From NCBI GenBank assembly GCA_016202645.1, contig JACQOF010000127.1, forward strand, positions 1-64,000: a DNA stretch of 64,000 bases, read 5' to 3'. Below the pieces are notes generated by a model. The model searched no databases and had not been told where the DNA came from. It saw only the letters and a list, made by a program, of their open reading frames with translations. This document shows positions 1 to 13,919 of the stretch, piece by piece; positions within the stretch are counted from its first letter, which is position 1, and every line of letters starts with the position of its first letter. A program made the translations under genes and the position numbers. Source of the stretch: a bacterium (GTDB lineage: Bacteria; Lindowbacteria; 2-12-FULL-62-27).

Positions 1-15
1 ACCCCCCCCCCCCCG

Positions 16-489
16 TCAGGAGCCATGCACTTTAATCGCGTATGTCTCAAATAATATGTCTTCAATAACGCCGCCCGACAGAATCTTGTTTATTTCCACC
101 AGGAGCTCCCTTTCAATTTTTCCCAGGTTTTTTACGCGCAATTCTTCCTGCGATTTCGCGCCAAAAACATGGTAAACGACTTTTTTTAGATCAACCCTTC
201 TTGCTTCCAATTCCCTTTGAAAATCTAGTTCATGACTTTTTGGAGATGAATATCCGAGCGCCAAACTGAAGTACACATTTGTCGTCGGATCAGTTATGTA
301 CATCTTCATGCCGCGCAAATGAAACGTCGACAGAGTTGTGGTATCTCCCCCATAGTGTTCCTCGTATGAGTATCTGTACTTCCGTATCTTCTTTACGATT
401 TCAGGTGAAACAAAGGCGGCTATAATCGACAGAATAACAAACAGTTTGAAACCCATCCACATCCATTTTCCGCGCGCTTCATAAGTCAT
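16..489 (-). CDS. FliL-like single-pass membrane protein (integron cassette 3)
   Basis: The 157-aa product has a short charged N-terminus, one hydrophobic segment at about residues 13-30, then a soluble domain. That domain has the spacing of the FliL family: a strand near MYITDPTTNVYFSLALGY, an ELEARRVDLKKVVYHVFGAKS helix region, and a C-terminal LLVEINKILSGGVIEDILFE stretch. FliL is an inner-membrane protein around the flagellar stator, but no flagellar gene lies nearby, so a motility role cannot be assumed. It sits in cassette position 3, begins 14 bp inside the R' box at 503-509, and has poor ribosome-binding sequence. ATGs at codons 10 and 12 are alternative starts. Base composition is more A+T-rich than the core genes. 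Confidence 0.6.
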   Translation of the reverse strand: MTYEARGKWMWMGFKLFVILSIIAAFVSPEIVKKIRKYRYSYEEHYGGDTTTLSTFHLRGMKMYITDPTTNVYFSLALGYSSPKSHELDFQRELEARRVDLKKVVYHVFGAKSQEELRVKNLGKIERELLVEINKILSGGVIEDILFETYAIKVHGS

Positions 490-502
490 ACGGAATTCAA
501 CA

Positions 503-561
503 ATTCAACGCCTGGCACCATGACCTGGCACCATGACCCACGGTGGAGCAATTTGTTAGCC
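503..561 (-). other. attC site of the toxin-antitoxin cassette
   Basis: Read on the minus strand, this 59-bp site opens with R'' GGCTAAC (561-555), which overlaps the TAA stop of the toxin gene. It closes with R' GTTGAAT (509-503), which fits the GTTRRRY consensus. The R'' box is the exact reverse complement of GTTAGCC (1068-1062) at the other end of the same cassette, as required if the cassette once circularised. The centre contains a 13-bp direct repeat of the type GACCTGGCACCAT. Complementarity of the L boxes is weak. Confidence 0.7.
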
Positions 562-810
562 GATGATCTTGTCATAGTCCGAATGACTGCCGATCCAGAA
601 CCATTGAATTCCCTCTGAAACTTCATGCCCTAGCACGCGATAGTGAAGCCCCACGCGCGCCGAGCAGACTGGGCCGATACGTTTGAAATGTAGTGACGGA
701 TGGTGGAGATCGTTCTTGAGTAGCAGGAAGTTCTTGTCGGCAAGCAATCGAACCCCCTCGGGTAATCCTCCATAGAGCGCCCAAAATTTCGGCGACGCAA
801 AATGTTTCAC
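556..810 (-). CDS. RelE/ParE-superfamily toxin (cassette 2)
   Basis: The 84-aa product matches RelE/ParE-like toxins in length and in its C-terminal pattern: a HPSLHFKRIG segment, SARVGLHYRVLG, and the ending GIQWFWIGSHSDYDKII. Such toxins are ribosome-dependent mRNA interferases or gyrase poisons; the sequence does not say which. The start is taken as GTG at 810. It overlaps the antitoxin stop as GTGA, so the two genes are translationally coupled in antitoxin-toxin order. The stop codon lies inside the attC R'' box, as is common for cassette genes. Confidence 0.78.
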   Translation of the reverse strand: MKHFASPKFWALYGGLPEGVRLLADKNFLLLKNDLHHPSLHFKRIGPVCSARVGLHYRVLGHEVSEGIQWFWIGSHSDYDKIIG

Positions 811-1007
811 AGCTCCTTTGAACGACCGGCCCGATAATCCTCTTTGGATTCCTCGATCAATTCGTCGAGTTTGCCGGAGCCCGCATCCCGTTCTATTTGA
901 GCATCCCAATCCCGGGAGTCGCGTTCTATGAACCAGTCTCTAAGCTTGGAGACTTCCGAGGACGAAAGTTTCTGGATCTCTTGCTCAATTCGCGCCAAAT
1001 TCCCCAT
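807..1007 (-). CDS. Antitoxin of type II TA pair (cassette 2)
   Basis: This 66-aa acidic, mostly helical protein contains RIEQEIQKLSSSEVSKLRDW and a charged C-terminal tail ending EESKEDYRAGRSKEL. This is a pattern common among antitoxins paired with RelE-like toxins. The start is ATG at 1007 because a perfect GGAGGT lies 7 nt upstream; an in-frame GTG three codons earlier overlaps that SD. It is coupled to the toxin by a 4-bp GTGA overlap. The protein presumably neutralises the toxin through its C-terminal tail and may autoregulate, but no operator was identified. TA cassettes are frequent in integrons and may stabilise the array. Confidence 0.75.
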   Translation of the reverse strand: MGNLARIEQEIQKLSSSEVSKLRDWFIERDSRDWDAQIERDAGSGKLDELIEESKEDYRAGRSKEL

Positions 1008-1061
1008 GATCAACACCTCCAGACGTAATAATACAGAAAATTCATTCGATTTTCAAATATC

Positions 1062-1129
1062 GGCTAACGCCCAAGCTAAGCCGCAGGCCCGCCGGAGGCG
1101 GGACTGTCGGCTTGAGCGCCTTGTTGGGC
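1062..1129 (-). other. attC site of the Mrr-like cassette
   Basis: This 68-bp site, read on the minus strand, opens with R'' GCCCAAC (1129-1123) and AAGGCGCTCAAGCCG. It closes with CGGCTTAGCTTGGGC and R' GTTAGCC (1068-1062). The halves fold into a long imperfect hairpin (AAGCC/GGCTT, CAG/CTG, CCCGCC/GGCGGG) with unpaired bases, the structure recognised by IntI in single-stranded attC. The R'' box is the exact reverse complement of the GTTGGGC box at 1877-1883 that opens the same cassette. R' deviates at one position from GTTRRRY. The last codons and TAG stop of the nuclease gene lie inside this site. Confidence 0.83.
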
Positions 1130-1822
1130 GAGTCCGACTTGACGATTGTAGTCGTCCAACTTCGCTTCGAGTTCCGCTACCTTCCCCTCGACTAAACTCA
1201 CGATTTCTGTTGGCGACTGAAAGGACTTATCTTTTCCAAAGAGCGTAAGTACCTCTATCGCCTCACTCTGAAACGGGTAGACCCCTCGGAATGCACGAGT
1301 TAGTAGATCGGTGCACATATCAACAATGCGAGCTCCGGAATAATCATACTCACCAACATCTGCTCGGAGGCCATATTTGATTCGCTCGTCCTTGGGTATG
1401 TCCCAGTAGCGATCCTTGCAAATGTTAATTCGGTCGAATAGCTCACGAAGGCGCATGGCGTTGATACTTCCGCTCGCCAACTCGTGCATTTCACTGATCG
1501 ATGTCACTTGCACATTGGTCAGATTTGCAGCTTCTCGGGCACCGCTTTGAAACCCCGCTTCTGAAAGCAGAATTCCTCTATCAGCTCCGACATCCGCTAC
1601 GATCTCACGCAAGGCTAATACATGAAGTTTACTTACAGGCGTCTTCCAGTGTTTGCACTCAACAACCCACGTAATATCGAATCCGACGCGGTGTGACTTT
1701 ACAAGCACGTCTACGTCGTGGCTGGTTCTTACGCCAGAAACGGTGACATCTGTAGTTGCGTCGAGTCCTAGAGAGCGAAAATAGGACGCAGCGTCTTCTT
1801 GGTATTGTTTCCACGCCTTCAT
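1076..1822 (-). CDS. Mrr-like PD-(D/E)XK restriction endonuclease-fold protein (cassette 1)
   Basis: The 248-aa product has an N-terminal domain typical of Mrr_cat nucleases: a helix (WKQYQEDAASYFRSLG), the metal-binding aspartate region HDVDVLV, then WVVECKHWK carrying the E-x-K pair at about residues 54-56. A following helix ends in GADRGILLSEAGFQSGAREAA. Mrr proteins cleave modified DNA or act as general DNA-damage nucleases, so a defence cargo is plausible. The C-terminal ~100 residues are not recognised and end in a coiled coil. The last ~18 codons are encoded by the attC site, so the tail QQGAQADSPASGGPAA is probably incidental. There is no companion methylase. Confidence 0.72.
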   Translation of the reverse strand: MKAWKQYQEDAASYFRSLGLDATTDVTVSGVRTSHDVDVLVKSHRVGFDITWVVECKHWKTPVSKLHVLALREIVADVGADRGILLSEAGFQSGAREAANLTNVQVTSISEMHELASGSINAMRLRELFDRINICKDRYWDIPKDERIKYGLRADVGEYDYSGARIVDMCTDLLTRAFRGVYPFQSEAIEVLTLFGKDKSFQSPTEIVSLVEGKVAELEAKLDDYNRQVGLAQQGAQADSPASGGPAA

Positions 1823-1876
1823 AAAATTGGTTTATCTCATTTTCGCGTTCGTCTATCGCGCGTCGCGAGCCGACAC

Positions 1877-1936
1877 GCCCAACAGTAAATAGACTGACCA
1901 GCATAACACTCTGGGAACGTGTCTTTGGTCAGTCTA
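1877..1936 (-). other. Candidate attI / first-cassette junction with inverted repeat
   Basis: GTTGGGC (1883-1877, minus-strand reading) is the R'-type box at which cassette 1 joins the platform. Seven bases away begins a perfect 11-bp inverted repeat, TAGACTGACCA (1890-1900) and TGGTCAGTCTA (1926-1936), separated by 25 bp. It lies between the intI stop (2051) and the first cassette, where attI would sit in an inverted integron. The repeat could carry integrase binding sites or be a terminator; neither is shown. Confidence 0.5.
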
Positions 1937-2050
1937 TCCTGCCGACTGGAAAATGCCGGCGTATGGGACAATTTATGTATGTTCATCGAGTTGCGCAGAT
2001 CGGTTTTGATATTGATGGATGATATGCGGATCGGCATATACATATACAAC

Positions 2051-2356
2051 TCAAAGTCCGTCGACCGGGCTGCGAACGGCGGCAGGACCACGATTGAGAA
2101 CATGAGTGTAGATCATCGTCGTTTTCACGTCGCTATGACCCAATAATTCCTGGACAGTTCGAATATCAGAACCACTTTCCAAAAGATGTGTGGCGAAGGA
2201 ATGCCTGAACGTGTGGCACGAGGCCCGCTTCGTCAGTCCCGCAGTCGCCATCGCGTCTTTGACCGATCTTTGAACCAGTGATTCGTCGACGTGGTACCGG
2301 CCTTCCTCGCCGGTCTTCGTGTTTTTCCAACGATTCCCCTGCGGAAATATCCACAT
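2051..2356 (-). pseudogene. intI: 5'-truncated integron integrase (tyrosine recombinase, C-terminal part)
   Basis: The remaining 101 codons match the last third of IntI. They contain FPQGNRWKN, then [30 protein letters not shown] and [19 protein letters not shown], which closely resemble integron integrases rather than XerC/D. The box II His and Arg, the later His, and the catalytic Tyr (TMIYTH) are present. The N-terminal domain, the box I Arg and the IntI-specific extra helix are missing; homology begins at the FP that follows the extra domain. An ATG at 2356 with AAAGGAGG 8 nt upstream could express the fragment. It cannot be an active integrase alone. Confidence 0.85.
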
Positions 2357-2446
2357 CACCGACGCCTCCTTTCACTCCGACGCTGCGACGCTACCACTCC
2401 GCCAAATCCGTTGTCAACGCCGGTCAGACCGGGGAAGTTTTTTTTC

Positions 2447-3220
2447 TCAGAGCGGCGTCACATACGCCGCCGTGATGCCTCCGTCGACCTGGAGCGCGGC
2501 GCCCGTTACGAAGGATGAATCTTCCGACGCCAGAAACAGGGCGGCGCGCGCGATTTCCCTCGCTTCGCCGAAGCGGCCCATCGGGATGTGCACGAGGCGC
2601 CTCTGCCGCTTTTCCTCGGTGTCGAGAATTTTCATGAGGAGATCGGTTTTCAGGGGGCCCGGACAGAGCGCGTTCACCCGGATGTTTTCCCGCGCGTGGA
2701 CCACCGCCAGTTCCCGGGTGAGCGCGAGCACGCCGCCCTTGCTGGCCGTGTACGCGACCTGCGGCGTCGCGGCGCCCATGAGCGCCACGAACGACGCGGT
2801 GTTGATGATTGATCCGCCGCCCGCGCGACGCAGAGCCGGGATGCCGGACTTGCAGCCGAGAAAAACGCCGCGGAGATTCACCGCGAGAGTCTTTTCCCAG
2901 ACGTCGGACGGAGTGGAGACGGCATCGTCGTCTTTCGGAAGAAGGATTCCGGCGTTGTTAAATAGAATGTCCAATCGGCCGAACGCGCTCTCGGTTTCCC
3001 GAACCATCCGGTCGCAGTCTGCGGCCTGCGAAACGTCCGCCCGGATGACAAAGGCGGCGCCCCCGGCGGCGGCGATGCGGGTCTCTGTATCCTGTGCGGC
3101 GGATTCATCCACATCCACCACCGCCACCTTCGCGCCCTCCGACGCGAACAAAACGGCCGACTCCCGGCCGATGCCGCTCCCGGCCCCGGTGATGACCGCA
3201 ACCTTGTCCTTAAGCCTCAT
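2447..3220 (-). CDS. Short-chain dehydrogenase/reductase
   Basis: The 257-aa classical SDR shows the cofactor motif TGAGSGIG (residues 11-18), D37 after the second strand suggesting NAD preference, NNAG (88-91), and the catalytic Ser143, Tyr157 and Lys161. The ending VTGAALQVDGGITAAYV is typical of the FabG-like branch, but the substrate cannot be told. It stands alone, 90 bp from the intI fragment and upstream of a REP-type repeat pair. Its compact length and intact active site indicate a working enzyme. Confidence 0.88.
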   Translation of the reverse strand: MRLKDKVAVITGAGSGIGRESAVLFASEGAKVAVVDVDESAAQDTETRIAAAGGAAFVIRADVSQAADCDRMVRETESAFGRLDILFNNAGILLPKDDDAVSTPSDVWEKTLAVNLRGVFLGCKSGIPALRRAGGGSIINTASFVALMGAATPQVAYTASKGGVLALTRELAVVHARENIRVNALCPGPLKTDLLMKILDTEEKRQRRLVHIPMGRFGEAREIARAALFLASEDSSFVTGAALQVDGGITAAYVTPL

Positions 3221-12997: not shown

Positions 12998-13044
12998 CCT
13001 CATCGTTGACATCAGCAGCCAGGGCAGGATAGGGTCGCCGACGA

Positions 13045-13262
13045 ACGGAAGGTGCCTTGCTGCACGTGCGGCTGGGTAAACGGGAATCCCGTGACTCCGC
13101 TTTCTGCGGGGAAATCGGGAGCGGTCACGCCACTGTGAAGGGGTGCCGGCGCCGGATGCCACTGTCCTCCTTCGCCGCCTGCGATGATGTTCGCGCAGAG
13201 ACGGCTACGGAGGACGGGAAGGCGGCGCGGCGATACGCCTGAGCCAGGAGACCGGCCTTTCG
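13045..13262 (+). ncRNA. Cobalamin (B12) riboswitch
   Basis: This region fills the 301-bp gap before the CbiX-like gene. It contains the conserved core in order: GGTGCC near 13051, GGGAATCCCGTG (13082-13093), GGTCACGCCACTGTGAA (13123-13139), and the B12 box GAGCCAGGAGACCGGCC (13241-13257). This is the typical order and spacing of the AdoCbl-type riboswitch. The limits are approximate. The ATG follows within about 40 bp, so control is probably translational, by hiding the AAGGGGA ribosome-binding site. Confidence 0.9.
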
Positions 13263-13298
13263 GGACGATCAGATTCTCCTCGATGAAAGGGGAAGGCC

Positions 13299-13845: not shown

Positions 13846-13919
13846 GCGCCCGTAGCTCAGCTGGATAGAGCGACGGCCTCCGAAGCCGTAGGCCAGAGGT
13901 TCGACTCCTCTCGGGCGCA
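13846..13919 (+). tRNA. tRNA-Arg (anticodon CCG)
   Basis: The 74-nt cloverleaf has acceptor GCGCCCG/CGGGCGC, a D-arm GCTCAGCTGGATAGAGC, an anticodon stem ACGGC/GCCGT with loop CTCCGAA (anticodon CCG), and a T-arm AGAGG-TTCGACT-CCTCT. The discriminator is A. CCA is not encoded. No integration scar is evident downstream. Confidence 0.97.

What the first reader, a model, noticed from the sequence alone, without database searches (positions are those of the whole stretch)
1..2360. Inverted integron with co-oriented intI and cassettes
The intI fragment and all three cassettes read the same way, with the cassettes downstream of the intI 3' end. Most described integrons have divergent intI. The only described alternative that fits is the inverted layout of Treponema denticola-type integrons. 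Two complete cassettes have R'/R'' boxes that match exactly (GTTGGGC/GCCCAAC and GTTAGCC/GGCTAAC).
Basis: partly seen in the sequence, partly recalled or inferred. Interest (0 to 1): 0.85.

Follow-up and report, generated by a model that had tools for sequence, protein, structure and literature searches.

The report
Inverted integron with broken integrase gene
The start of this contig is the remnant of a known, rarer kind of bacterial gene-capture system in which the captured genes sit behind the integrase gene instead of in front of it; the integrase is reduced to its last third, but its docking site still carries a paired DNA signal that also marks other such docks, most of them without an intact integrase.

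Summary
The layout is real. The C-terminal 101 positions of an integron integrase (window 2051-2359, minus) are followed on the same strand by an attI core (1877-1883), a Mrr-type nuclease cassette with a strong attC (1062-1129; 42.4 bits with a model built only from other genomes) and a toxin-antitoxin cassette. The second predicted attC (503-561) has the right R'' box but no supported hairpin; the third ORF runs to the contig end and is unproven. On an IntI tree the side of the array (19 rows downstream, 23 upstream) needs one change; the fragment lies in the downstream ('inverted', 'reverse') group, which is already described. So the kind is known, and this copy cannot encode a whole integrase.

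Not met in the papers searched: in close relatives the intI-attI interval carries two palindromes, TTATRCNG-N3/4-GYATAA, usually 133-135 bp apart, the second beside the core. The window has exactly two, 133 bp apart. A search for the pair in 294 Planctomycetota genomes found 24 sites; of 22 classified, 1 has an intact intI, 3 a broken one, 10 a 20-131-residue C-terminal stub, 8 none detectable. The window belongs with these integrase-less attI platforms. Whether they still work, served in trans, is untested.

The parts
2051..2359 (-). intI remnant: C-terminal part of IntI (102-codon ORF; similarity may reach about 2374, past an in-frame TGA at 2372-2374)
   Evidence: TIGR02249 160.1 bits, positions 215-315/315; 209-315 with one TGA; aligned to L047 IntI residues 266-366, 85% identity over 102 columns
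2022..2039 (-). palindrome A, ATATGCCGATCCGCATAT, 12 bases after the intI stop
   Evidence: 11 of 13 consensus positions; 1 of only 2 such sites in the 64 kb
1889..1906 (-). palindrome B, TTATGCTGGTCAGTCTAT, 133 bp from A, 5 bases before the core
   Evidence: 11 of 13 consensus positions; alignment A3
1926..1937 (-). 12-base arm that pairs with 1889-1900, so that B is also one arm of a longer inverted repeat
   Evidence: fold z -4.61, 0 of 200 shuffles as good
1877..1883 (-). attI core site GTTGGGC = start of cassette 1
   Evidence: sequence; position matches relatives
1076..1822 (-). cassette 1 gene: Mrr_cat-type restriction endonuclease homologue
   Evidence: PF04471 50.2 bits, E 3.2e-13, cut-off 21
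1062..1129 (-). attC of cassette 1 (GCCCAAC ... GTTAGCC)
   Evidence: 42.4 bits, E 6.3e-8 with model R1, whose 19 seeds come from other genomes; fold z -4.25
807..1016 (-). cassette 2, first ORF: putative antitoxin
   Evidence: ORF only, no Pfam or NCBIfam match; promoter-like TTGAAA-17-TATTAT at 1056-1028, in a scan that found 3 sites against 2.5 expected
556..909 (-). cassette 2, second ORF: ParE-like toxin
   Evidence: PF24732 29.2 bits, cut-off 24.4
555..561 (-). R'' box GGCTAAC, exact partner of the GTTAGCC that starts cassette 2; end of cassette 2
   Evidence: sequence; the hairpin expected next to it is not supported
16..489 (-). third ORF, FliL-like, cassette status unproven
   Evidence: PF03748 23.8 bits, below cut-off 24.6; NF005175 45.5 bits, below cut-off 218
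2447..3220 (-). flank: complete SDR dehydrogenase gene; not part of the integron
   Evidence: PF13561 E 6.9e-68; orthologue beside the same synthetase-like gene in G001, followed there by another ORF and no attC hit

Best explanation
Window 1-2375 is the remnant of an inverted-type integron: attI lies behind the 3' end of intI, and cassettes inserted there read in the same direction as intI. Shown: stub, attI core, one complete cassette with attC, a second cassette with matching boxes, attI interval with two palindromes as in intact relatives. Inferred: the 5' two thirds of intI were lost by deletion or replacement up to about 2375, the attI interval stayed, and the cassettes can now move only if an IntI acts in trans. 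The paired palindromes are most likely accessory binding sites of IntI, playing the part that DR1 and DR2 play at attI1 (recalled).
For: IntI C-terminus 85% identical over 102 columns to L047, with which it pairs at 99/80 in the tree, inside sets of 13 rows (100/92) and 18 rows (100/96). Array side on the tree needs one change among 42 labelled rows. attC. A, B and core at +12, +145, +168 after the stop, against +6 to +10, +139 to +144 and +163 in intact or nearly intact relatives. No shuffle of 500 gives two such sites in the interval. The same A-B-core, found by motif, lies 10 bases from IntI 3' ends in G064, two of them internally deleted, and next to stubs in 10 of 22 classified Planctomycetota sites.
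Against: The motif consensus was read off these loci, the window included. It is absent or weak in the more distant inverted loci, including the Treponema denticola and cyanobacterial ones, so it marks a subclade. Second attC unsupported. The 2.4 kb differ in composition (GC 0.496 against 0.613), so the junction near 2375 could be an assembly chimera. No IntI binding was or can be measured here; many platforms found by the motif lie in genomes whose only full-length IntI shows no A/B motif beside it.
Confidence: 0.75

Rival explanations
1. The palindromes are an operator: a dimeric regulator (or IntI as repressor) binds A and B and controls the cassette promoter Pc, whose -10 box overlaps B.
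For: 17-18 bp palindromes have the size of a dimer operator; in the ACAG type the right arm of B reads CTGTATAAT, a perfect -10 hexamer just before the core. PMC7691350 (passage) puts a putative transcription start at the 3' end of attI in T. denticola. Conservation after loss of intI is easier to understand if the site drives expression.
Against: No regulator gene travels with the sites; outside attI the strict motif is rare, e.g. exactly two sites in the 5.6-Mb genome of L045, both in attI. A and B change together with the IntI subclade.
Confidence: 0.35
2. Assembly or binning artefact: the left 2.4 kb belong to another organism and were joined to this contig near 2375.
For: GC and tetranucleotide step at the junction; tetranucleotide correlation 0.489, below the 1st percentile (0.531) of 48 pieces of equal size; odd run of C at position 2-14; G001 has no integron at this place.
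Against: Cassettes and integrons are normally of foreign composition. Stubs followed by intact attI are common in other genomes, including long contigs of 3.5-4.4 Mb, so the odd junction is what this class looks like. If true, the layout reading would stand but the host would be unknown.
Confidence: 0.15
3. An ordinary divergent integron whose intI end was flipped or moved so that it only looks co-oriented.
For: intI is truncated, so a rearrangement did happen.
Against: The stop-A-B-core spacing is the native spacing of intact inverted relatives; the fragment falls inside the inverted group, where no row has attC on the other side.
Confidence: 0.04
4. The platform and its likes are dead relics: attI is retained only by chance and has no present use.
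For: No intact inverted IntI was found in this bin; about a third of intI genes are pseudogenes (abstract and passages of PMC2426708); several satellite genomes show no intact IntI with an A/B interval. The motif search demanded intact palindromes, so their intactness in the hits proves nothing by itself.
Against: Several platforms per genome, with attC hits downstream in 6 of 22 classified; trans mobilisation of integrase-less arrays is accepted in the literature (passage of PMC12444791, section of PMC9668308).
Confidence: 0.45

Closest known systems
Reverse (inverted) integron of Treponema denticola and other Treponema
   Same: intI transcribed towards attI, in the direction of the cassettes (passages of PMC3607928, PMC7691350, PMC4909258); same IntI group in the tree
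   Different: Here intI is truncated. The A/B palindromes are not seen at >=12 of 13 in the T. denticola-titled locus L083. That paper reports putative S1, S2, DR1 and DR2 in the T. denticola attI (passage); I did not compare letters.
Inverted integrase group of IntI (Planctomycetota, Chlorobi, Cyanobacteria, Spirochaetes and others)
   Same: Membership by tree; [quoted passage not shown]
   Different: The window's phylum is represented by only 3 held genomes and is not identified by name; paired palindromes shown here for a subclade
[quoted passage not shown]
   Same: Cassettes without a working integrase
   Different: Keeps an attI with core and palindromes and a stub of intI; only one attC passes the model, and IntegronFinder 2 asks for two (passage of PMC9024848)
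Decayed Xanthomonas integrons
   Same: Integrase inactivated by frameshifts, stops or large deletions, array kept (passage of PMC12444791)
   Different: Divergent class, one fixed site; here several platforms per genome occur in relatives of the inverted class

Membership tests
Integron | integron-type tyrosine recombinase | tested here: inconclusive
   C-terminal third only, 160.1 bits against a cut-off of 265 for the whole protein; the part before profile position 209 is missing
Integron | attI with a GTTRRRY core beside intI | tested here: met
   GTTGGGC at 1877-1883 after an interval aligned with 6 relatives
Integron | cassettes with attC sites | tested here: met
   one attC at E 6.3e-8; second unsupported
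Integron | integrase-dependent cassette movement | not testable with these tools
   needs a recombination assay
Inverted (reverse) integron | cassettes downstream of the intI 3' end, same direction | tested here: met
Inverted (reverse) integron | IntI in the inverted clade | tested here: met
   99/80 with L047, 100/92 and 100/96 in larger sets; only 32% of columns filled
Inverted (reverse) integron | intact integrase gene | tested here: not met
   hence filed as a remnant, not as a complete reverse integron
CALIN | two or more attC sites without intI | tested here: not met
   one attC passes on this contig; others lie on other contigs of the bin
Divergent (class 1-like) integron | attI and cassettes on the 5' side of intI | tested here: not met
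   the 5' side is an SDR gene conserved in G001; no attC hit above 13.1 bits elsewhere in the window

The most novel reading that the evidence does not exclude
The inverted layout breeds satellite platforms: copies or remnants that keep attI (palindrome A, palindrome B, core), a stub of the adjoining intI 3' end and cassettes, scattered through the genome and served in trans by one remaining IntI, so that one integrase runs several docks. The window is such a satellite. The paired palindromes are the recognition signal that lets one IntI find them all.
Probability: 0.25. Interest if true: 0.75.

Novelty: new variant of a known kind. Interest (0 to 1): 0.5.

Why it matters
Inverted integrons are known mainly from their odd orientation. 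A conserved, searchable attI signal makes their docking sites findable by DNA alone, without the integrase, and shows that in the Planctomycetota genomes sampled most such docks have lost it. If IntI acts on them in trans, one genome has several insertion points instead of one; if not, they are well-preserved fossils, and why the palindromes persist is then a question about promoters. Either answer can be tested with standard attI x attC assays and promoter fusions.

Tried and rejected
Rfam at gathering thresholds over the window gave only a cobalamin riboswitch and a tRNA, no attC. A strict RYYYAAC/GTTRRRY search missed the window's attC because its R' is GTTAGCC; a relaxed search gave too many hits, 12 in 20 kb of ordinary sequence; hence a covariance model. 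Its seeds: 26 candidates, 19 used, 7 left out by hand before any search. G000:C47:7-123, at first noted as a third intI end, lies ahead of no cassette array that I could tie to it and reads as a XerC/D-like end (my judgement), so it is not counted. The motif at up to 2 mismatches is not enriched in the window's genome: 31 rows against 110 for the reversed pattern; only the paired arrangement is telling. Unpaired strict motif sites in relatives (six places checked) had no intI nearby and are treated as background; some others were not fetched. A query for the gene that follows SDR in G001 found nothing in the bin, with no positive control. The plasmid search found 52 records with partial matches, none covering 80% of the query; 47 rows were not listed and I did not look at them. 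The label 'downstream' of L032 in the tree rests on contig geometry, not on an attC; the other 18 have attC hits. L079 and the four XER rows were dropped from the careful tree. Of the 24 pair sites, L210 and L213 were left unclassified. The p-value computed for invariant columns used region borders set after looking, so I do not rely on it.
Full report
What is there. The window is the first 64,000 bases of contig C106 of an unnamed bin of 2.9 Mb, 146 contigs, 82% complete. Its phylum has 3 held genomes, all in one family; I could not name it. On the minus strand, a complete SDR gene ends at 2447; about 70 bases on begins an open frame of 102 codons (2051-2359) that is the end of an integron integrase: TIGR02249, 160.1 bits, positions 215-315 of 315. 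Similarity may reach back to position 209 across an in-frame TGA. The rest of the gene is not there. Behind the stub follow an interval of 168 bases, the core GTTGGGC (1877-1883), and genes on the same strand: a Mrr-type endonuclease homologue, an antitoxin-like and ParE-like pair, and a FliL-like ORF cut by nothing but followed only by the contig end.

attC sites. I built a covariance model R1 from 19 attC of other genomes, with the classical R and L stems (84.8% of cells paired, slid controls 20-47%). On the window it gives one hit, 1062-1129 minus, 42.4 bits, E 6.3e-8; the runner-up has 13.1 bits. The other strand scores 8.9, so the site is oriented as the genes are. The second site (503-561) gets no hit with filters off and does not fold better than shuffles. 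Its R'' box GGCTAAC is the exact partner of the GTTAGCC that opens the same cassette and is the only copy on that strand of the window, so the cassette end is plausible and the hairpin perhaps spoiled by the 13-base tandem duplication; that is inference.

The layout in relatives. With R1 at E <= 0.5, attC hits lie only upstream of intI in 23, only downstream in 16, on both sides in none, and nowhere in 41 of 80. Downstream loci carry record titles of 11 phyla; upstream ones are 21 Pseudomonadota, 1 Thermodesulfobacteriota, 1 Cyanobacteriota. On a careful tree of 84 rows the two sides need a single change (19 downstream, 23 upstream; the same in the quick tree). The window stub (32% of columns) pairs with L047, a Planctomycetota MAG, at 99/80, inside sets supported 100/92 and 100/96. 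The three best IntI matches among 60 sampled genomes show the same geometry: L033 and L034 with attC behind intI, L032 with the contig ending there.

A paired palindrome in attI. In the close relatives the stretch from the intI stop to the core holds two copies of TTATRCNG-N3/4-GYATAA: A starts 6-12 bases after the stop, B at 139-145, core at about 163-168 in the window, L045, L046, L047 and L049 (L046, L047 and L049 have atypical cores); A-B distance 133-135. L056 and L067 have 119 and 116; L048 has A, and B only below the threshold. The window's two copies (11 of 13) are the only ones at that level in its 64 kb; 0 of 500 shuffles of the interval give two, 11 give one. In the 23 upstream loci no site of 12 or more occurs in 283,675 bases; at 10 or more, 6 of 23 have one stray site behind intI and none has two. 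Against generality: the Treponema denticola, other spirochaete and cyanobacterial inverted loci do not have it at 12 or more, nor do most of the more distant inverted loci at 10 or more. In alignment A3 (7 rows) 19 of 23 invariant positions lie in A or in B plus core.

Tests with the motif alone. In seven relatives' genomes the strict motif is scarce: two sites in the genome of L045, both in attI; three pairs at 134-135 bp in that of L049 (G064) plus single sites. A later IntI search showed that each of the three pairs sits 10 bases behind an IntI 3' end, one intact and two internally deleted. G064 has a fourth place with a 27-residue stub; G063 one with a 49-residue stub and one without (only 415 bases upstream on the contig); G065 three with none. 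Next, the pair pattern in 294 Planctomycetota genomes hit 13 genomes at 24 places, three of them the known ones of G064; the reversed control pattern hit once. Of 22 places that I could classify (a GTT within 16 bases behind B was required), tblastn over up to 1,700 bases upstream gives 1 intact intI, 3 broken, 10 C-terminal stubs of 20-131 residues, 8 nothing at E 1e-3; in several of the 8 the last codons are visible by eye. R1 hits at E <= 0.02 lie downstream in the same direction in 6 of 22, and in the unclassified L210; one weaker hit (L207:154-207, E 0.093) lies upstream. Five places in four genomes share the same junction in front of the stub (L152, L197, L199, L200, L201), so they are not independent events. 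Because the search demanded intact palindromes, it cannot show that palindromes outlive intI more often than chance.

Is it one genome? The 2.4 kb have GC 0.496 against 0.613 and an outlying tetranucleotide make-up. G001, of the same family, has the SDR and the synthetase-like gene in the same order and another ORF behind the SDR, with no attC hit. So the integron is either an insertion in this lineage or a chimeric join. The bin holds more cassette DNA on small contigs: attC hits at E <= 0.02 on C3 (two), C47, C5 and C128 besides the window. C128 also carries an internally deleted, frame-shifted IntI with two attC behind it on the same strand, i.e. a second broken inverted platform; whether these contigs are rightly binned is open (tetranucleotide correlations 0.83-0.87, low but inside the range of 18 6-kb pieces). 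No intact IntI was found in the bin; 18% of the genome is estimated missing.

How it most likely works. Shown: order and direction of parts, one good attC, native attI spacing, loss of intI. Inferred from integron biology: IntI would insert cassettes at GTTGGGC from the folded bottom strand of attC; this copy can no longer make its own IntI. Inferred with less confidence: A and B bind IntI, as DR1 and DR2 do at attI1 (recalled; the review PMC10500605 mentions the two attI1 sites, passage). The rival, an operator over Pc, is close behind, because the right arm of B reads as a -10 box in many relatives.

What is known. [quoted passage not shown] its supplementary figure was not seen and may show part of the same conservation). 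Searches for attI repeats, palindromes, reverse integrons, anammox integrons and truncated intI listed no paper whose listing or passages I saw describe the A/B pair or integrase-less attI platforms; most hits were seen only as listings, and most subscription papers are not held. Verdict: a known kind of integron, in decay, belonging to a variant class not met in what I could read.

Noticed in passing
L029 / G000:C128:1-6054: Second broken inverted platform in the same bin: internally deleted, frame-shifted IntI, then a Shedu (SduA_C) cassette and a DUF4365-like cassette with attC of 31.9 and 26.3 bits.
   Followed up: partly
G000:C3, C5, C47 (L133, L134, L135): Further small contigs with attC hits; cassette ORFs include an FRG-domain protein and another Shedu C-terminal domain, so nuclease-like and defence-like genes recur.
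   Followed up: partly
L205 (G154:C1:3076500-3089000): Two stub-attI platforms in the same direction 4.2 kb apart, as if an attI lay inside or behind another array.
   Followed up: no
L152, L197, L199, L200, L201 (G064, G188, G115, G219): Five platforms in four genomes share the same sequence in front of a 27-residue intI stub: one old satellite lineage, inherited or spread.
   Followed up: partly
L214, L216, L217, L218: Planctomycetota genomes with inverted attI platforms have full-length IntI elsewhere with no A/B motif behind it and attC hits on the 5' side: both integron types in one genome.
   Followed up: no
window 1889-1937: Besides the palindrome, a 12-base perfect inverted repeat (arms 1889-1900 and 1926-1937) just before the core, fold z -4.61; not examined in relatives.
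   Followed up: partly
window 1-14: The contig begins with a run of 13 C, possibly an assembly artefact.
   Followed up: no
window 13033-13274 and 13846-13919: Cobalamin riboswitch (78 bits) and a tRNA on the plus strand.
   Followed up: no
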